Positions 3 to 6,625 of a stretch of 6,625 nucleotides of DNA are shown piece after piece. This stretch comes from Erysipelotrichaceae bacterium (GTDB taxonomy: Bacteria > Bacillota_I > Bacilli_A > Erysipelotrichales > Erysipelotrichaceae). Under the pieces are notes generated by a model, which ran no database searches, had not been told where the DNA came from, and saw only the letters and a list, made by a program, of their open reading frames with translations. Both the position numbers and the translations under genes were made by a program. The DNA is taken from positions 1-6,625 of the forward strand of contig JAFWKS010000285.1 in assembly GCA_017511325.1 (NCBI GenBank). Reading direction: 5' to 3'. Within the stretch, counting starts at the first letter, position 1; each line of letters begins with the position of its first letter.

Positions 3-158
3 ACTCCAGTTGCGCTGTCAATCAATGCTGATGTAGGTGACAGCGTTCGGGTGAGAGTCGCGAACGGAAAAGCCTGGATCACTGGAAATGATACGCTGCC
101 CCCGTCAAATGACAAAAAGGAAGTCGGCACCAAGATGATGAAGAACATGTCCGATCGG
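3..158 (+). pseudogene. Phage tail protein fragment (3'-truncated, start outside window)
   Basis: The frame beginning at base 3 has no stop until 236 and reads TPVALSINADVGDSV, then RVRVANGKAWITGN and DTLPPSND. This 'N/TPVALSI-ADVGD-V-VRV-NGKA-ITGN-T-PP-DD' pattern is typical of tail or host-binding proteins of Bacillota siphophages, where it leads into a coiled-coil or tail-fibre region. It is recognised from memory, not by a search. Recognisable phage sequence fades after about codon 45. From about base 159 the frame merely runs antisense through the lyase gene on the other strand until the TGA at 234-236, so the chimeric tail of this frame should not be read as protein. The 5' end lies beyond the left edge. 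It could be a prophage remnant, a recombination scar or an assembly chimera. Confidence 0.55.
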
Positions 159-773
159 GACGATGACATCATCATTGACTTCTCTGATCTTTATGATCAG
201 TTCTTCGATCTGTCTGATGGTGAGAGACTTTCTTGAAGAATAACCGCGGGATTTCTGGATCTCTACGAGCTTTACATCTTTTTTCTTAAGCCTGTTTACG
301 ATCGCTTCTGCAGCAAACTCATCGTTTATCAGATCGATCTGTTCATATTTGACGCCATAGGCCTTTAATGATTGAGAGGAATCACCACACAGGCCGATCA
401 TCTCCTGCAACGAATCATAAGGCAGACCCGTCAAAGAGATCATCGTATCACCGTGTTTGAGCAAGGCAGAAAAGACAAGATACAAAGCATTGGTCCCGCT
501 CATGATGTGGGGTCTGACCAGCGCATCCTCACATCCTAATACTTCCGCGAAGATCCTTTCGAGCTTGTCTCTGCCAGAGTCATAGTTTCCATAACCGTTG
601 ATGTCCGCAAAATCAGTATAGGAGACCTGATTCTTTAAAAATGCGGAAAGGACCCGATTGGAATTGATCAGGCAGATGTCATCAATTTTTTTATAGATGT
701 CTTTAAGATCTTCATCTGATCTTGAAGACAGTTCGTATATTTCTTTATCGATCTGATTTATAACCATATGCAT
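105..773 (-). pseudogene. Methionine gamma-lyase-like (aluminium resistance family) protein, C-terminal half lost
   Basis: The family is a fold-type I PLP enzyme group (Pfam Met_gamma_lyase, Bacillus YnbB relatives) of roughly 400 residues, often labelled aluminium resistance protein; its true substrate is uncertain. Visible family motifs are GYGNYDSGRDKLE (60-72), SGTNALYLVFSALL (92-105), TGLPYDSLQEMIG (115-127) and IQKSRGYSSRKSLTI (172-186). Homology stops at Val205 (bases 159-161), where the family normally continues into a VDNCYGEF-like segment. Residues 206-222 are out-of-family readthrough into phage-like DNA, ending at a stop at 105-107. The PLP-binding lysine lies in the missing half, so the product should be inactive. 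The ATG at 771-773 follows the channel gene's TGA with one base between and has an AAGAAGG-like ribosome site 5 bases upstream; a second ATG two codons in is possible. It is probably cotranscribed with the channel gene. Confidence 0.85.
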
Positions 774-1672: not shown

Positions 1673-2986
1673 ATGAGACTGGAGATCAAAAAAGCAGGCA
1701 TCAATGGAGAGGGCATCGCTTTCTATAAAAGAAAGCCTGTTTTCATCGAGGACTGTTTTCCTGAAGAGATCGTCGAAGCCAAGCTCTATGATGAAGGAAG
1801 GCACTTTCGAGGCGAACTGTTAAAGGTGATCAGACGAAGCAAAAACAGAGTCAAGGTCCCATGTGAACATCAGACAAGATGCGGCGGATGCGCCTTGATG
1901 CCTGTCTCATACAGTGAACAGCTTAAGATCAAAAAACAGCTTCTGGAAGGAGCGCTGTACAAGTATACCGGAGAAGATATCGATGTGGGGCAGATCGTTC
2001 CAAGTGAGAAACAGCTCTTCTATCGCAACAAATGCAACCTGCCGATCGTAGAGAAAGACGGCATACTGATCAATGCCTTATACGCTTCAGGTTCAAACCA
2101 TCCGGTCTATATAAATCACTGTCTGATCCATGATCTGAAACTTGAAGAGATCAGGATCAGGGCCATGAAAGTCCTGAACAGGCACAGATACAGACAGTAT
2201 GACCATCATCTTAAACAAGGCCTAAGACAGCTGATGATCAGAGGTTTTGACAAGCAGTATCAGATGGTGTTGATTACCGGGAAAGATATCATCGATGAAG
2301 ATACGATCAACGATCTGAAGAAGATCGACTTGCTCGTCAGTATCTATCAGGGCATCAATATCCATAAGAATCCAATAAACATGATGCCGGATAATCTGCA
2401 TCTGCTTTATGGGGAAAAGAAGATACAGCTGAAACTGGGAAGATACAGATTGAGATTAAGCCCTCAGGCTTTCTTTCAGCTGAATCAGGATCAGGCAGAA
2501 AAGATCTATGAGGAAGTCAGAAACATGATCGATGAACATTGTGAAACTATCGTAGAAGCTTATTGCGGTATCGGTGCTATCTCCCTTTACCTCAGTGATA
2601 AGGCGAAACAGGTCACCGGAATCGAGATAGTTGAAAGAGCAATTCAGGATGCCAAGGAAAACGCAAGATTAAATAATATAGATAACACGACTTTCATAAC
2701 TGATGACGCACCAAAAGCGATCAGAAGGATCCTGAAGGATCAGGATATCGATGTACTGGTCGTTGATCCGCCAAGGACTGGTCTGGATGATGAGCTGCTG
2801 CTAAGCATCATGAAGTCGAAGATAAAAAAGATCATCTATGTTTCGTGCAACCCGGCAACGCTGGGCAAGAATCTGGATGTGCTGAGCAACAGATATCGCA
2901 TTGAAGCGATCAAGGGTTTTGACATGTTTCCTAATACACCACACGTCGAGACGGTCTGTTTGATGTCAAGGGTCGAAGGAAAATAG
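1673..2986 (+). CDS. rlmD: 23S rRNA (uracil-C5)-methyltransferase, RlmD/RumA family
   Basis: The 437-residue cytoplasmic enzyme transfers a methyl group from SAM to C5 of a uracil in 23S rRNA (U1939 in E. coli RlmD; some Gram-positive homologues also modify U747). Domains in order are an N-terminal TRAM RNA-binding domain (about 1-57), an Fe-S cluster site (C64-x5-C70-G-G-C73 with C150), the central RNA-binding insert, and a Rossmann methyltransferase domain. Key motifs are FFQLNQ (267-272), the SAM-binding EAYCGIG (295-301), DPPRTGL (365-371), the nucleophile Cys392 in SCNPATLGKNL, and the general base Glu426 in HVETV. Length and motifs match the full family, so the gene looks intact. The ATG directly begins the TRAM domain but has no clear ribosome site. 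The exact target uridine cannot be read from sequence. Its 3' end carries a 13-bp sequence repeated at 6261, relevant to an integration event. Confidence 0.95.
   Translation: MRLEIKKAGINGEGIAFYKRKPVFIEDCFPEEIVEAKLYDEGRHFRGELLKVIRRSKNRVKVPCEHQTRCGGCALMPVSYSEQLKIKKQLLEGALYKYTGEDIDVGQIVPSEKQLFYRNKCNLPIVEKDGILINALYASGSNHPVYINHCLIHDLKLEEIRIRAMKVLNRHRYRQYDHHLKQGLRQLMIRGFDKQYQMVLITGKDIIDEDTINDLKKIDLLVSIYQGINIHKNPINMMPDNLHLLYGEKKIQLKLGRYRLRLSPQAFFQLNQDQAEKIYEEVRNMIDEHCETIVEAYCGIGAISLYLSDKAKQVTGIEIVERAIQDAKENARLNNIDNTTFITDDAPKAIRRILKDQDIDVLVVDPPRTGLDDELLLSIMKSKIKKIIYVSCNPATLGKNLDVLSNRYRIEAIKGFDMFPNTPHVETVCLMSRVEGK
2943..2955 (+). repeat. att-like core, left copy, in the 3' end of rlmD
   Basis: The 13-bp ACGTCGAGACGGT lies in the codons for His-Val-Glu-Thr-Val near the C-terminus of the methyltransferase. 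It recurs exactly at 6261-6273, while bases immediately outside differ on both sides. Several streptococcal ICEs are known to integrate at this conserved part of the rum gene (family knowledge from memory). Calling it an attachment site is inference, because conserved coding alone could also explain part of the match. Confidence 0.5.
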
Positions 2987-3101
2987 CGGCAAAGGCCAGT
3001 AATACTGCGGTTTTCGGGCAATCGGGCAAATTCGGAATCAGCCAGACCAAACGCTCTGCGGTAACTTATCCGAGGGCAAATCCGGTCAAAAAGTGTGAGA
3101 A
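2987..3101. other. Non-coding stretch after rlmD, with short tandem repeat and a possible decayed reading frame
   Basis: No gene is supported here. The 8-bp TCGGGCAA is tandemly duplicated at 3014-3021 and 3022-3029. One plus-strand frame is open from the rlmD stop to a TGA at 3103-3105 and reads AKASNTAVFGQSGKFG, then ISQTKRSAVTYPRANPVKKC, but it has no start codon or ribosome site. It may be a decayed coding tail or a dispersed intergenic repeat. No intrinsic terminator for rlmD is seen. Confidence 0.4.
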
Positions 3102-3178
3102 TTGAGTTGCCAAGTTAGATGTCAATAAGTTGAGTTGCCGAGTTAGATGTTGGGGTGTTGTGGCTGTGAGATAGATGT
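3102..3178 (+). repeat. Three direct repeats with exact 28-bp period
   Basis: Two 21-bp copies begin at 3102 and 3130 and differ at one base; their core is GTTGCC(A/G)AGTTAGATGT. A third, degenerate copy starts exactly 28 bp later at 3158 and keeps TTG at its start and TAGATGT at its end (3172-3178). The 7-bp gaps differ. The array ends 15 bp before the ribosome site of the Fe-S protein gene. It is too short and too regular for CRISPR. It could be an operator array, an element end or simple tandem duplication; no function is shown. Confidence 0.7.
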
Positions 3179-3193
3179 CAGGGAAAGTCGAAT

Positions 3194-3200
3194 GGAGGTG
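3194..3200 (+). promoter_or_regulatory. Strong ribosome binding site that sets a TTG start
   Basis: GGAGGTG ends 5 bases before the TTG at 3206-3208, a near-ideal spacing, and no ATG or GTG in the same frame fits. This is the reason for choosing the TTG as the start of the Fe-S protein. Confidence 0.85.
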
Positions 3201-3205
3201 ATAGA

Positions 3206-4024
3206 TTGAAGAAATATTTGGCACCGCTTTTTATGCTCATAATCTTTGAAGCTGTTGCAATTACATTATGGCTTACAAAGGATAATATTTTTTACCTCTT
3301 CAATTTCAGCTACATCGGGCTTTCTATATCTTTGGGGATTTTTCTGTTTATAAAAAAATATAAGCACGCAAGACGTATCGTTCAGTTGCTTGTTGGCTTA
3401 TATATGCTGATATATCTGGGGATTATCTGCAATGAGAATATGCAGATCGAGGGATTCTGGTATTACTTATTCACCGGAGTTTTTGAGGCTGCCACCATTC
3501 ATTACACCGTTGCAAAGATTTTCGGGCCACTATTATTCGGCAGAGGCTGGTGTGGATATGCCTGCTGGACAGCTATGGTCTTGGATTTTCTTCCTTACAA
3601 GTCTCCATCACAACCAAGAAAGAATCTCGAATGGATTAGATACATTACATTTACGTTTTCACTGGTATTTGTTGCCTCATTGTTCCTTGCTAAGGTTGGC
3701 AATATCGAACGGATTATGTTCTGGGCATTTATTGTCGGCAATCTCGCTTATTATGCTGTGGGCATTGCACTCGCATTTGCGTTTAAGGATAACCGAGCAT
3801 TTTGTAAATATATATGTCCCATCACTGTATTTTTGAAGCCAATGAGTTACTTTTCGGTTCTCAGGATAAAGTGTGACAAAGACAAATGCATCTCGTGCGG
3901 GAAATGCAAACGAGTATGTCCTATGAATGTTGATGTGACAGATAATTCTCGAAAACGAAAAAATGGAACAGAATGTATTCTATGCATGGAATGTGTTAGA
4001 AATTGCCCAAAGGATGCACTTTAG
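3206..4024 (+). CDS. Membrane-bound 4Fe-4S ferredoxin-like protein (NapH-like)
   Basis: The 272-residue protein probably moves electrons between a membrane carrier and two [4Fe-4S] clusters; partner and pathway are unknown. It has several hydrophobic spans (about 5-23, 29-49, 57-76, 84-105, 144-163, 170-193). Two Cys pairs typical of the NapH/NosR/CcoG-like group are present: C116-G-Y-A-C120 in FGRGWCGYACW, and C200-K-Y-I-C204-P. The C-terminus holds two ferredoxin motifs, C228-x2-C231-x2-C234-x3-C238-P and C257-x2-C260-x2-C263-x3-C267-P, and ends almost directly after the second. The first TGCxxC-style half resembles the Cys pairs of polyferredoxins. It starts at TTG behind a strong ribosome site. 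No redox partner gene lies nearby, so it is an orphan. It is AT-rich with ATT/ATA Ile codons, unlike the GATC-rich genes to its left, suggesting different origin. The specific NapH role in nitrate reduction is not implied. Confidence 0.85.
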   Translation: MKKYLAPLFMLIIFEAVAITLWLTKDNIFYLFNFSYIGLSISLGIFLFIKKYKHARRIVQLLVGLYMLIYLGIICNENMQIEGFWYYLFTGVFEAATIHYTVAKIFGPLLFGRGWCGYACWTAMVLDFLPYKSPSQPRKNLEWIRYITFTFSLVFVASLFLAKVGNIERIMFWAFIVGNLAYYAVGIALAFAFKDNRAFCKYICPITVFLKPMSYFSVLRIKCDKDKCISCGKCKRVCPMNVDVTDNSRKRKNGTECILCMECVRNCPKDAL

Positions 4025-4137
4025 GACAGGAAAAGGGCTCCGACACTGTCATCATCGGCAACGGGGAGCGCATTTTACCGGGCTCAACCAGCGGTAGAGT
4101 TGCAGGAAATCAACCTACGGTTCGTGTAAAAATATGA
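4024..4137 (+). other. Spacer with an unexplained protein-like open frame
   Basis: Between the Fe-S gene and the HTH gene (4025-4178) one frame is open from 4000 through to the TGA at 4135-4137. It reads GQEKGSDTVIIGNGERILPG, then STSGRVAGNQPTVRVKI. It has no ATG or GTG start and no ribosome site, so it is not called as a gene. The frame may be the tail of a decayed gene or part of a dispersed repeat. A weak -10 candidate, TATGAT, lies at 4133-4138 for the downstream regulator, without a clear -35. Confidence 0.3.
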
Positions 4138-4162
4138 TGATATCGGCTATGCTTGAGTCATG

Positions 4163-4172
4163 AAAGGAGGTG
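4163..4172 (+). promoter_or_regulatory. Ribosome binding site fixing the ATG start of the HTH gene
   Basis: AAAGGAGGTG is close to a perfect Shine-Dalgarno match. Its GGAGG lies 8 bases before the ATG at 4179. The upstream in-frame GTG at 4170 is part of this ribosome site itself, so it is rejected as a start. Confidence 0.9.
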
Positions 4173-4178
4173 CCCGAT

Positions 4179-4793
4179 ATGGATCAAATCAAAATTGGAA
4201 AATTCATAGCATCCTGCAGGAAGGAACAGGGCATGACTCAGGAAGTCCTTGCCGAGAAGCTCGGAATCAGTGACCGGGCGATATCAAAATGGGAGACCGG
4301 AAAGGCTATGCCGGATTCCGGGATTATGTTGGAGCTGTGTGAACTTCTGAAAATTAACGTCAACGAACTCCTGTCGGGCGAAAGAATTATGGCAGAAGCA
4401 TATGACAAACGGGCAGAAGAAAACCTGCTGGCAATGAGGCGAGAGGTTGAGGAAAAGAACAGACAGATGCTTAAGACGGAATACTGGATCGCGTTTCCTG
4501 CCGTCATTTCCGGACTGGTCATGGTGTTTGTGGCTTCATTTTTAGAGATGCCAGTCTGGCTGCGAATTGCACTTATCGTGTTTGTTCTCATAATGATTTT
4601 TACGGTCGCTTTTATCGCCGTGGGCATTGAGCAAAAGGCCGGATACTATGAATGCCAGAATTGCCACCACAGATATGTACCTACATACTGGCAGACAAAT
4701 CTTGCTATGCACATGGGACGGACAAGGTATATGAAATGCCCGGAGTGTGGAAAAAGAAGCTGGCAGAGAAAAGTTCTTACAAAAGAAGAGTAA
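4179..4793 (+). CDS. XRE-family HTH regulator fused to two membrane helices and a C-terminal zinc ribbon
   Basis: This 204-residue protein is a probable membrane-tethered DNA-binding protein; its target genes and signal are unknown. Residues 4-65 form an HTH_3/XRE domain (IGKFIASCRKEQGMTQEVLA, then GISDRAISKWETGKAMPD). A charged, helical linker (about 70-100) is followed by two hydrophobic segments, about 103-121 and 126-149. The C-terminus carries a zinc-ribbon pattern, C159-x2-C162 and C187-x2-C190, with a basic ending. HTH plus membrane helices plus zinc ribbon is seen in uncharacterised regulators of Clostridia. It has its own ribosome site and is followed by a strong terminator, so it appears to be the last gene of its transcript. 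It might regulate the Fe-S gene just upstream, but that is only proximity. Composition is intermediate between its neighbours. Confidence 0.88.
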   Translation: MDQIKIGKFIASCRKEQGMTQEVLAEKLGISDRAISKWETGKAMPDSGIMLELCELLKINVNELLSGERIMAEAYDKRAEENLLAMRREVEEKNRQMLKTEYWIAFPAVISGLVMVFVASFLEMPVWLRIALIVFVLIMIFTVAFIAVGIEQKAGYYECQNCHHRYVPTYWQTNLAMHMGRTRYMKCPECGKRSWQRKVLTKEE

Positions 4794-4800
4794 GCAGACC

Positions 4801-4845
4801 AAGGCTCTTCGCTACTGATTAGGTTCAGTGGCAAGGAGCCTTTTT
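4801..4845 (+). terminator. Strong Rho-independent terminator after the HTH gene
   Basis: AAGGCTC (4801-4807) pairs with GAGCCTT (4836-4842). An inner stem CTACTGA/TCAGTGG continues the helix with one G-U pair, and the run of T ends at 4845. The middle TTCG/CAAG segment has only one mismatch, so the stem is about 18 pairs long with a short loop. It begins 7 bases after the stop codon. Confidence 0.9.
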
Positions 4846-4946
4846 ATGCTTCGATTTAGATTGCGATCCCGGACTTGAATTCCACATGCAAAAACACAGA
4901 GTTAACAATACAATAATCACAAAACACAAAATAATGTCGCAATAAC

Positions 4947-4975
4947 TTGCGAATTCTAATCGCCTCTCGTATAAT
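4947..4975 (+). promoter_or_regulatory. Near-consensus sigma-A promoter of the ATPase gene
   Basis: The -35 box is TTGCGA (4947-4952) and the -10 box TATAAT (4970-4975), separated by exactly 17 bp. The -10 is a perfect match and the -35 matches four of six bases. Transcription would start around 4982, leaving a leader of only about 14 bases before the ATG at 4996. The -10 lies inside the palindrome described next. Confidence 0.75.
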
Positions 4976-4993
4976 ATACGTGAGGCGATTTTT
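4958..4993 (+). terminator. Terminator-like palindrome enclosing the ATPase promoter -10 box
   Basis: AATCGCCTC (4958-4966) is perfectly complementary to GAGGCGATT (4982-4990). Inside it, after one T/T mismatch, CGTAT (4968-4972) pairs with ATACG (4976-4980) around a 3-base loop. A run of five T (4989-4993) follows, and the ATG is two bases further on. In RNA entering from upstream this would be an intrinsic terminator. The right arm also holds the GAGG (4982-4985) that is the only ribosome-site candidate for the ATPase, 10 bases from its ATG. As DNA it could equally be an operator. The -10 box sits at the tip. Confidence 0.7.
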
Positions 4994-4995
4994 AT

Positions 4996-6228
4996 ATGAA
5001 ACTGTTTAGGCGTGAAAAGTATATATCACGAATAAGACCTTTTTTACATGATACCGACATTATCAAGGTTATAACAGGAATACGACGCTCAGGGAAGTCG
5101 AGTCTGCTGCAAACCGTTGCAGAGGAACTGGTGGAAAGTGGCGTGAACAAAAATAATTTATTCTTTTATAACCTTGACAAATATGGCTATAAAAATATTA
5201 AAACTCCGGAGGCATTGGAAGAATTACTATTTGATGATGAACACCCCGAGGGTGTTAAGTATGTTTTTATTGATGAGATACAGAACGTTGAAGGCTTTGA
5301 ACCGGTGATAGAGGCGCTTAGACTTGAAGAGGACTATTCCATATTTATCACAGGATCCAACTCATACCTGTTAAGCGGTGAATTGGCGACCAAGCTTACG
5401 GGACGATATATAGAATTTGAGATTCAAACTCTTGGATTTGATGAGTATGAAGCTATGAAGGCATACTATGGAAAAATGATTGACACAGATATGCTGAGGG
5501 AATTTGACTCATATCTGCTTGGTGGCGGTTTTCCCAAAACGCTATTTTATGATGAATTGCATGAAAAGCAATTATATGTAAAAACGGTTCTTGACGACAT
5601 ATTCAATAAAGACATAAAAGGGAGGGTCAAGATAAAGAACGTAGAGGCTTTCAATATCGTAAGAAACTATGTGATCAATAATTTTGGCTCAACTGTCAGC
5701 ATCAGTAATATATGCGATGATCTTAAGAAAACAGGGATAGCGATTACTCGTCCCACGATCACCAGATATATACAGGCACTGTCTGATGCCAAGATCATCA
5801 GTGAATGTACCCGTTTTGACATGAAATCCAGACGTTCTATGAAGAATGCAAAGAAGTATTATCTGGCCGACCTGGGTATTTACTTTTCAACCAACACGAA
5901 CAACAGGATAAATTATGGGCCAGTGCTTGAAAACGTGGTTTATCAATATGCAAGGTCAATGGGATACAAGGTGAGCGTCGGAAGAATCGGTAATCTGGAA
6001 TGTGATTTTGTACTGCGTAGTATACAGAATGAATATGCTTATGTACAAGTGGCATTAACGATCATGGATAGCAAAAATACAGAAGACAGAGAATACAGGC
6101 CTCTCGAAAGTATAGCAGACGGTTATCCGAAATATCTGGTTACACGAAGAGATCTGATACAAAAAAGAAATGGAATAAAACACGTGGATATCATAGATTT
6201 TATTCTTGATCAAAAAATGTTTGATTGA
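4996..6228 (+). CDS. AAA ATPase of the AAA_14/DUF4143 family
   Basis: The 410-residue protein belongs to a large, widely spread family of bacterial and archaeal ATPases with no settled function. Residues 7-140 form the AAA_14 core: Walker A G28-IRRS-GKSS, Walker B YVFIDEIQN (89-97), sensor-like ITGSNSYLLSG (118-128) and TGRY (135-138). A linker with the conserved GGGFP (176-180) follows. A winged-helix-like segment lies about 230-270 (SISNICDDLKKTGI, then TRPTITRYIQALSDAKII). The C-terminal DUF4143 part (about 285-385) resembles a PD-(D/E)xK nuclease fold, with Glu312 in LENVVYQYARSMGY, Asp337 in ECDFV and then VQV at 350-352, where active nucleases usually have E/Q-x-K. The missing Lys suggests a non-cleaving fold. 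The gene is full length with typical family start, is isolated between a terminator and a rum fragment, and carries its own promoter. It is often found as a lone accessory gene. A role in conflict or stress is speculation. Confidence 0.9.
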   Translation: MKLFRREKYISRIRPFLHDTDIIKVITGIRRSGKSSLLQTVAEELVESGVNKNNLFFYNLDKYGYKNIKTPEALEELLFDDEHPEGVKYVFIDEIQNVEGFEPVIEALRLEEDYSIFITGSNSYLLSGELATKLTGRYIEFEIQTLGFDEYEAMKAYYGKMIDTDMLREFDSYLLGGGFPKTLFYDELHEKQLYVKTVLDDIFNKDIKGRVKIKNVEAFNIVRNYVINNFGSTVSISNICDDLKKTGIAITRPTITRYIQALSDAKIISECTRFDMKSRRSMKNAKKYYLADLGIYFSTNTNNRINYGPVLENVVYQYARSMGYKVSVGRIGNLECDFVLRSIQNEYAYVQVALTIMDSKNTEDREYRPLESIADGYPKYLVTRRDLIQKRNGIKHVDIIDFILDQKMFD

Positions 6229-6241
6229 TTCAATAACGAAA

Positions 6242-6340
6242 TTTTTACCCACAGGAAATGACGTCGAGACGGTGACACTTTTATCCCGCAGAAAAGATGA
6301 GCCGAGAGTACAGGTGACGATGACTTGCAAGTCTGACTAA
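6242..6340 (+). pseudogene. Orphan C-terminal fragment of an RlmD/RumA-type methyltransferase
   Basis: The frame reads FLPTGNDVETVTLLSRRKDE and continues 12 codons to TAA at 6338-6340. VETVxLLSR is the C-terminal hallmark of the rum/RlmD family, equivalent to HVETVCLMSR at the end of the intact gene at 1673-2986. Nothing upstream in this frame resembles the rest of the enzyme. It differs from the intact gene's end in codons and sequence beyond the 13-bp core, so it is not a simple duplication. The best reading is a displaced 3' end left by integration into a rum gene. A chance fragment from another rearrangement is the alternative. Confidence 0.65.
6261..6273 (+). repeat. att-like core, right copy
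   Basis: ACGTCGAGACGGT is identical to 2943-2955 and in direct orientation. It encodes the same Val-Glu-Thr-Val stretch within the orphan rum fragment. Together the two copies bracket about 3.3 kb of accessory genes. No recombinase gene is found between them. Confidence 0.5.
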
Positions 6341-6391
6341 TACAGTAAAGAAACGTTTTAAAAAAAATCGTATTTATGGGAGATGACTCAG

Positions 6392-6625
6392 ATGAACTAT
6401 AAGGTAATTGACAGAGAAACATATTATAGAAAAGGTGTATTTCGCCACTTTACGGAAGACTGTAAGTGCTCGACCTCGATAACTTCGAGAATAGACGTAA
6501 CAGAGCTCGTCACACATTCAAAGAACACAGGAACGAAGTTTTATGTCAATTTCCTGTATATTCTTTCAAAGGTTATGAATTCACGTGAAGACTACAGAAT
6601 GGGATACCTTTGGCAGACAGATGAG
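6392..6625 (+). CDS. catA: Type A chloramphenicol O-acetyltransferase, N-terminal part (runs off the window)
   Basis: The enzyme acetylates chloramphenicol with acetyl-CoA in the cytoplasm and confers resistance; the full protein is a trimer of roughly 210-220 residues per chain. The 78 codons present show the family's N-terminal features: MNYKVIDRETYYRKGVFRHF, the segment STSITSRIDVTEL, and KFYVNFLYILSKVMNSREDYRMGY (family pattern 'KFYPAFIFLVTRVINS---FRTGY'). The catalytic His motif (HxxxD) lies beyond the right edge, so activity cannot be judged. The ATG at 6392 has GGGAG (6378-6382) nine bases upstream. An in-frame ATG at 6383 is too close to that ribosome site. No convincing promoter is visible in the 50 bases after the rum fragment. 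An 8-codon frame (6376-6402) overlaps the start in another frame but has no ribosome site. Its position beside the rum fragment suits a mobile element. Confidence 0.9.
   Translation, partial: MNYKVIDRETYYRKGVFRHFTEDCKCSTSITSRIDVTELVTHSKNTGTKFYVNFLYILSKVMNSREDYRMGYLWQTDE

What the first reader, a model, noticed from the sequence alone, without database searches (positions are those of the whole stretch)
2943..6340. Signature of an insertion at the 3' end of rlmD/rum: 13-bp direct repeat and displaced gene tail
The sequence shows ACGTCGAGACGGT at 2943-2955 inside the intact methyltransferase and again at 6261-6273. The second copy starts an orphan piece coding VETVTLLSRR, the C-terminal signature of the same family. 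Between them lie 3.3 kb of accessory genes with different composition. Streptococcal ICEs are known to integrate at this conserved rum site (from memory). My inference is a decayed or cis-mobilizable island flanked by attL and attR and lacking its integrase. The orphan tail diverges outside the core, as expected when the element supplied a replacement 3' end.
Basis: partly seen in the sequence, partly recalled or inferred. Interest (0 to 1): 0.7.

Follow-up and report, generated by a model that had tools for sequence, protein, structure and literature searches.

The report
Decayed gene cassette behind rlmD
The end of a housekeeping RNA-methylase gene in this gut bacterium has been replaced by the left end of a mobile DNA segment, followed by three passenger genes and a worn second copy of the docking site; in another bacterial family the same left end recurs in front of different single genes, like beads on a string.

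Summary
Repeat and orphan tail are real. The 13-bp repeat alone is not significant (37% of simulated windows hold one); its context is. Window 2943-3205 matches an orphan module in an unrelated Lachnospiraceae genome in 221 of 264 columns, starting exactly at the repeat, so rlmD has an element-supplied 3' end. This left end ('LE') consists of nine tail codons (CLMSRVEGK), a stretch that folds as a hairpin in some relatives (not here) and three iterons 28 bp apart. Profiles trained without the window find LE behind rlmD, behind serine integrases and between passenger genes. Genome G846 has three modules in 4 kb, with a single long ORF between successive modules and no recombinase found. The orphan at 6261 is perhaps a worn rlmD-site mimic (borderline). 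Best reading: a non-autonomous, integrase-less, probably decayed segment (CIME-like cassette) carrying fer4, an HTH gene and a candidate defence ATPase, beside a CatA-like gene. rlmD as a serine-integrase target is known; nine open-access searches found no description of LE or of such arrays.

The parts
1673..2955 (+). rlmD (23S rRNA m5U1939 methyltransferase), host part up to and including the first core copy
   Evidence: TIGR00479 310 bits; 86% aa identity to RUG14856 over residues 69-433
2943..2955 (+). Core copy 1, ACGTCGAGACGGT; left junction (attL-like)
   Evidence: similarity to the L290 module begins here
2956..2986 (+). Element-supplied rlmD tail CLMSRVEGK and stop
   Evidence: First 45 columns from 2943 identical to the orphan module of L290; same C-terminus on integrase P0079
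2987..3190 (+). Non-coding part of the left end (LE); hairpin stretch CCAGTAATACTGCGG degraded here
   Evidence: Non-coding profile trained without the window: 2991-3156, E=6e-9; whole-module profile 2945-3157, E=3e-17; no stable fold here, z=+1.57
3115..3178 (+). Three iterons [TA]TAGATGT at 3115, 3143 and 3171 (28 bp apart)
3206..4024 (+). Passenger 1: membrane 4Fe-4S protein (fer4, NapH-like)
   Evidence: Pfam Fer4 families, TIGR02163 below its cut-off; homologue directly behind rlmD in G031
4170..4793 (+). Passenger 2: HTH regulator with a C-terminal zinc-finger-like part
   Evidence: HTH_3; 90% aa identity to a gene of the G031 array; DNA block 4084-4788
4996..6228 (+). Passenger 3: AAA_14/DUF4143 ATPase, candidate defence family PDC-S01
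   Evidence: PDC-S01, E=8e-130
6238..6260 (+). Possible worn copy of the rlmD left half-site (DMFPxT-coding), about one base out of register
   Evidence: 9 of 200 shuffles (0.045) score as high; borderline
6261..6273 (+). Core copy 2; right junction (attR-like relic)
6274..6340 (+). Orphan tail TLLSRRKDEPRVQVTMTCKSD; not matched by the LE profile
   Evidence: no homologue found for the 44-aa frame
6383..6625 (+). CatA-like O-acetyltransferase gene, cut by the window end; beyond the second core
   Evidence: PF00302; best NCBIfam match CatA_like_3, below its whole-protein cut-off because cut short; 94.9% nt identity to a pSRC6 gene

Best explanation
rlmD was recombined within the 13-bp core that codes for the start of VETV. 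From there on the DNA is the left end (LE) of a mobile element: nine codons that complete RlmD, then about 200 bp with three iterons. Three passenger genes follow, then a worn second attachment site, then another passenger gene. The segment has no detected recombinase, so it is a non-autonomous and probably decayed unit of the kind called CIME. Inferred working: a serine recombinase supplied by another element with the same specificity (candidates: prophage-like elements in which LE is followed by a triplet of serine recombinases) joins LE to rlmD or to an rlmD-site mimic, so that segments pile up in tandem. The LE codons keep RlmD complete; the hairpin, where intact, would end rlmD transcription; the iterons would bind a directionality factor or a regulator. 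Shown: the foreign left end, its recurrence with different cargo, tandem modules, no recombinase in the G846 units. Inferred: movement in trans, hairpin and iteron functions, present inactivity.
For: Window 2943-3205 against L290: 221 of 264 columns, starting at the core; non-coding identity 0.81 against mean 0.48 and maximum 0.65 of 200 random segments. Profiles trained without the window hit it. Upstream genes agree with the closest relative, downstream genes do not. An intact relative shows the mechanism: G043 rlmD with a long tail and a serine integrase ending in an RlmD-type tail. Tandem modules with one long ORF between them and no recombinase among five scanned ORFs in G846. LE followed by serine-recombinase triplets in G671 and G760, the latter with phage lysis genes.
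Against: The right junction has the core but no LE behind it, and its site mimic is borderline. The window hairpin does not fold. In G934 a module follows what looks like an integrase remnant, and L088 has a 76-aa integrase remnant (DUF4368, below cut-off), which fits decay of larger elements as well as free cassettes. Passenger fer4 also occurs without rlmD tails nearby. Only 4 of 10 Lachnospiraceae LMSRV tails reach E<=0.05 with the non-coding profile. No circle or activity seen.
Confidence: 0.75

Rival explanations
1. Accretion and decay of larger elements only: complete ICEs, IMEs or prophages integrated one after another at rlmD, lost their recombinases and most genes, and left LE, cargo and junctions. 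There is no cassette-like movement of single genes.
For: CIME accretion is described (PMC5704250, passages). Integrase remnants lie beside tails in L088 and, by eye, in G934.
Against: G846 has modules 1.55 and 2.18 kb apart with one long ORF each, no recombinase among the five ORFs scanned, and near-identical 100-bp right ends before both full modules. The window and G846 share LE but not cargo.
Confidence: 0.5
2. The orphan at 6261 is this host's native rlmD tail, displaced by one insertion of a 3.3-kb segment between identical attL and attR cores.
For: Same strand and exact 13-bp core, third codon positions included. Native RlmD ends vary widely among relatives, so the tail cannot be excluded as native.
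Against: In relatives orphan tails are also junctions between segments. A half-site mimic upstream is not expected at a simple attR. The closest relative ends differently (CCLRR).
Confidence: 0.3
3. Chance: the second core and the orphan frame are coincidence, and only the left end is an attachment relic; the downstream genes came by other routes.
For: A repeated 13-mer is found in 37% of simulated windows. No homologue of the orphan frame; no LE behind it; borderline mimic.
Against: The peptide match was reached in 2 of 300 simulations, and the left copy is independently shown to be a junction.
Confidence: 0.12

Closest known systems
Streptococcal ICEs and IMEs integrated in rumA/rlmD by single serine integrases (PMC4701971, PMC5357655; passages)
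   Same: Same target gene; direct repeats of 2-21 bp; the rumA 3' end is replaced by element sequence
   Different: No integrase, relaxase or conjugation gene found in the window; LE with iterons and single-gene units were not mentioned in the passages read
CIME (cis-mobilizable element; PMC5704250, passages)
   Same: Attachment sites kept, integration and transfer genes lost, tandem accretion
   Different: Descent from an ICE or IME not shown; the same LE heads unrelated single genes in other genomes
Prophages inserted beside rlmD in Erysipelothrix and Listeria (PMC12785378, PMC9680904; passages)
   Same: Same insertion site; in G760 LE is followed by serine recombinases, a GH25 lysozyme and a phage holin
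   Different: The window has no phage gene among the ORFs scanned
Integron gene cassettes (recalled, no call)
   Same: Single genes in tandem, one orientation, separated by recombination sites
   Different: Sites are rlmD-tail modules, and the only recombinases seen with them are serine recombinases; no integron integrase was searched for

Membership tests
CIME | Flanked by attL and attR | tested here: inconclusive
   Left junction strong; right junction only core plus borderline mimic
CIME | No integrase or recombinase | tested here: met
   No recombinase family among nine ORFs; ORFs under about 80 aa not scanned
CIME | No transfer genes | tested here: met
   No relaxase or conjugation family among the same nine ORFs
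CIME | Derived from an ICE or IME | not testable with these tools
   No remnant of an ICE or IME backbone in the window
rumA-type serine-integrase ICE or IME | Serine integrase gene whose 3' end holds the attachment site | tested here: not met
   None in 2987-6625; present in relatives G043 and L143
rumA-type serine-integrase ICE or IME | Element sequence replaces the rumA 3' end | tested here: met
Integron cassette array | IntI tyrosine recombinase and attC sites | not tested
   No search for IntI or attC was made; sites found are rlmD-tail modules

The most novel reading that the evidence does not exclude
rlmD anchors a gene-cassette system of Bacillota that is integron-like in layout but runs on serine recombinases: single passenger genes, each headed by a common left end (rlmD tail, hairpin, TTAGATGT iterons) and closed by a mimic of the rlmD site, stack in tandem behind rlmD and are moved in trans by recombinases of prophages and ICEs that share the left end. 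The window is a worn member whose left end is 84% identical to one in another bacterial family.
Probability: 0.35. Interest if true: 0.85.

Novelty: new variant of a known kind. Interest (0 to 1): 0.6.

Why it matters
rlmD/rumA is a documented hotspot for ICEs, IMEs and prophages in Bacillota. A recognisable left end lets the borders of integrase-less islands there be read from sequence alone, helps explain why relatives share shuffled single genes behind rlmD, and offers a testable route by which passenger genes move without their own recombinase. The same module lies inside a resistance-gene cluster on an Enterococcus hirae plasmid, so such junctions may have had a part in how that cluster was assembled.

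Tried and rejected
1. A guess from memory that the orphan's TGND|VETV junction is a standard element end: 0 hits in viral contigs, 0 of 392 genomes, and with a shorter pattern 0 of 9 and 0 of 299. Rejected.

2. I first took LMSRVEGK for the host's native end because an integrase (P0079) carries it as its C-terminus. Dropped after L133 and L290 showed this kind of tail together with the non-coding module at junctions without rlmD.

3. I expected each passenger to be bracketed by rlmD tails. Of ten further fer4 regions, seven had no match to the tail pattern and three (L106, L107, L111) had matches that I judged by eye not to be rlmD tails. So fer4 also lives outside such arrays.

4. The hairpin as a conserved structure: clear in L188 (z=-2.78), weaker in L244 (z=-1.50), absent in the window (z=+1.57); only these three were folded.

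6. DNA searches of phages and plasmids with the window gave single passenger genes only, in 3 and 2 records; the left end alone gave none in phages, and the right junction only weak matches (E of 2 or more).

7. Count of first neighbours of rlmD: one search printed 24 downstream and 19 upstream families for 28 genomes, but three genomes on each side had no neighbour and were counted as families. Recounted: 21 among 25 downstream, 16 among 25 upstream. One of 29 loci (L069) gave no row.

8. Several loci are one place fetched twice (L048/L078, L041/L088, L285/L290 and others). The nine proteins given to PADLOC were picked by eye from the flanks listed, so their defence share is biased.
Full report
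The repeat. ACGTCGAGACGGT lies at 2943-2955 in rlmD and at 6261-6273. In 300 Markov-1 simulations 37% of windows held some repeated 13-mer, so the bare repeat proves nothing; the peptide DVETVTLLSR read from the second copy matched HVETVCLMSR as well as or better in only 2 of 300 simulations. The gene is RlmD (TIGR00479, 310 bits). No whole genome is held for the window. The nearest rlmD found is in an uncultured Erysipelotrichaceae MAG, 86% identical over residues 69-433; in the same genome (G001) mscS (92%) and the lyase gene (82%) lie before an rlmD start as in the window.

rlmD is a synteny break. Within 4 kb of rlmD in 16 genomes, shared upstream genes keep their order between close relatives: window and G001 share mscS (-41/-41) and the lyase (-900/-906), G010 and G016 share five genes. 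Downstream, window and G001 share none and G010 and G016 share none, while the window shares fer4 (84%) and the HTH gene (90%) with the more distant G031, in another arrangement. Against this, two close groups (G003/G004 and G017/G026/G037) do keep most downstream genes in order. The first downstream gene falls into 21 families among 25 genomes, the first upstream gene into 16 among 25 (recounted). Nine passenger families recur in different places between arrays (one of these arrays, G192, has no rlmD in view).

How it works in intact relatives. In G043 an element sits in rlmD: rlmD has a long tail and a serine integrase (PF00239, PF07508, PF13408) ends ...SLDNDTHVESIVLLQRR, an RlmD-type end. 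Of 7983 homologues the best 120 were listed; after a near-constant stretch ending in about SLDND[ST][HQ], found in 119, the sequence varies, and 82 of 120 continue with an RlmD-type tail by a strict pattern. This agrees with the exchange of rumA and integrase 3' ends described for streptococcal ICEs (PMC4701971, passages). In G003 (L088) four orphan tails lie behind an rlmD paralogue, one of them on what looks like the last 76 aa of an integrase (DUF4368 E=0.005, below its cut-off).

The left end (LE). In L133 a serine integrase ends NTVETVCLMSRKEK and is followed by TTAGATGT iterons, as rlmD is in the window; clusters of three or more such iterons occurred at these two places only in 1.18 Mb (motif chosen after seeing both). 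The iteron pattern was then scanned in viral contigs: of 218 matches in the loci held, 12 had a VETV-like tail within 300 nt upstream, 11 of these (10 loci) RlmD-type LMSR/LITR tails. The tail pattern gave 23 viral stretches: three in long RlmD frames, one open to the contig edge (L257, ambiguous), 19 orphans. A profile of 18 modules, window left out, hits window 2945-3157 with E=3e-17. A profile of the non-coding part alone, trained on the ten iteron-pattern loci, hits 11 places at E<=0.1 in 2.46 Mb and none in a shuffled copy; the window is among them (2991-3156, E=6e-9). Two of the eleven are one G034 place fetched twice, and L213 starts at a contig edge; the other eight lie behind RlmD-type tails.

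The decisive comparison. In Lachnospiraceae genome G846 (L290) an orphan module with the same tail VCLMSRVEGK is identical to window 2943-3205 in 221 of 264 columns, the first 45 without a difference; in the non-coding part identity is 0.81 against a mean of 0.48 and a maximum of 0.65 for 200 random segments. Before the core the two differ: rlmD coding sequence in the window, an rlmD-site mimic in G846. The DNA from the core on is therefore foreign to the rlmD it follows here.

Modules with cargo. In G846 three modules (the first partial) lie at 5439, 6989 and 9165 of the reversed locus. One ORF of at least 90 aa lies between successive modules: a YhcG/DUF1016 nuclease and a Fic protein; a Cys/Met PLP enzyme follows the third, and then further genes with no next module in view. 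None of the five ORFs from rlmD to that PLP gene matches a recombinase. In G934 two modules are 4.9 kb apart; an integrase-like remnant ends on the first (by eye). In G952, G861 and G636 the module follows full-length rlmD. In G671 and G760 the module behind rlmD is followed by three serine-recombinase genes (3 of 3 in each match PF07508), in G760 also by a GH25 lysozyme and a phage holin; in G636 and L293 one gene of a similar set was scanned and matched. Upstream of orphan cores there is often a copy of the rlmD left half-site (coding DMFPxT): 20 of 32 sites reach 0.05 in shuffles, 1 of 6 sites that end on an integrase and 19 of the other 26, the window among them at 0.045 and one base out of register. 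In viral contigs 8 of 9 genes behind modules matched a PADLOC model at E<=0.001, two of them weakly (L142, L206), but the nine were picked by eye. In the window one of three passengers is the candidate defence ATPase PDC-S01 (E=8e-130); fer4 matched no PADLOC model.

Prevalence. The iteron pattern is in 7 of 348 Lachnospiraceae genomes (G911 looks like a plain repeat; fetched regions of the other six all hold the module) and in 1 of 195 genomes of the family of G001. The tail pattern is in 10 of 150 Lachnospiraceae, eight in full rlmD, two orphan. The module profile reaches beyond the coding tail in all ten (only to position 81 in L298); the non-coding profile reaches E<=0.05 in four.

Open points. 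The right junction has the exact core but no LE behind it; it may be another event, an older copy or the displaced host tail. No circle, empty site or activity was seen. Whether units move singly or are remnants of larger elements is undecided: I give the cassette model 0.35, the accretion-and-decay model 0.5.

Literature. Nine searches of open-access papers listed rlmD/rumA as a target of ICEs, IMEs and prophages, and CIME accretion, but nothing that I recognised as the LE module or rlmD cassette arrays. Subscription journals are mostly missing there. Of PMC4701971, PMC5357655, PMC5704250, PMC11578063, PMC12785378, PMC12904643, PMC13214566 and PMC9680904 I read passages; of the others, listings.

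Noticed in passing
L276 (Enterococcus hirae plasmid pHDC14-2.133K) 6014-6138: A truncated module (tail HVETVVLLSRVEK, with an rlmD half-site mimic before it) lies between lnu(B) and the ant(6)-sat4-aph(3') cluster.
   Followed up: partly
window 6392-6625; L104 1-500; L135 6001-6651: DNA similarity of the CatA-like gene begins at its start codon (6392) in G192 (89%) and in Selenomonas plasmid pSRC6 (95%), while the DNA before it differs.
   Followed up: partly
L135 (Selenomonas ruminantium pSRC6) 3595-6651: The close relative of the CatA-like gene lies behind an annotated 'radical SAM mobile pair' gene set.
   Followed up: no
L043, L045, L046, L054, L061, L063, L073, L088, L290: A second tail type...CCLYHQKKDFISVPYEPK..., is shared by rlmD genes and paralogues of several genomes and also occurs as an orphan, which suggests another left-end family.
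   Followed up: partly
L050/L080 (G016): The rlmD frame runs on into about 170 residues that look like a GNAT acetyltransferase, an apparent fusion of rlmD with a downstream passenger (not checked with a family search).
   Followed up: no
L089, L013, L069 (rlmD C-termini): A tail of about 60-100 residues (SKLNTKQHIEVEVKMDELDLT...) extends RlmD in unrelated genomes; its effect on the enzyme is unknown.
   Followed up: no
window 3206-4024: The fer4 gene is patchy (11 of 244 genomes of the order at E<=1e-30), with 77-83% aa identity in six of them.
   Followed up: partly
window 105-773: The methionine-gamma-lyase-like gene covers only positions 3-195 of a 405-position profile, so it may be broken; the similar stretch in G001 matches over the same part.
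   Followed up: no
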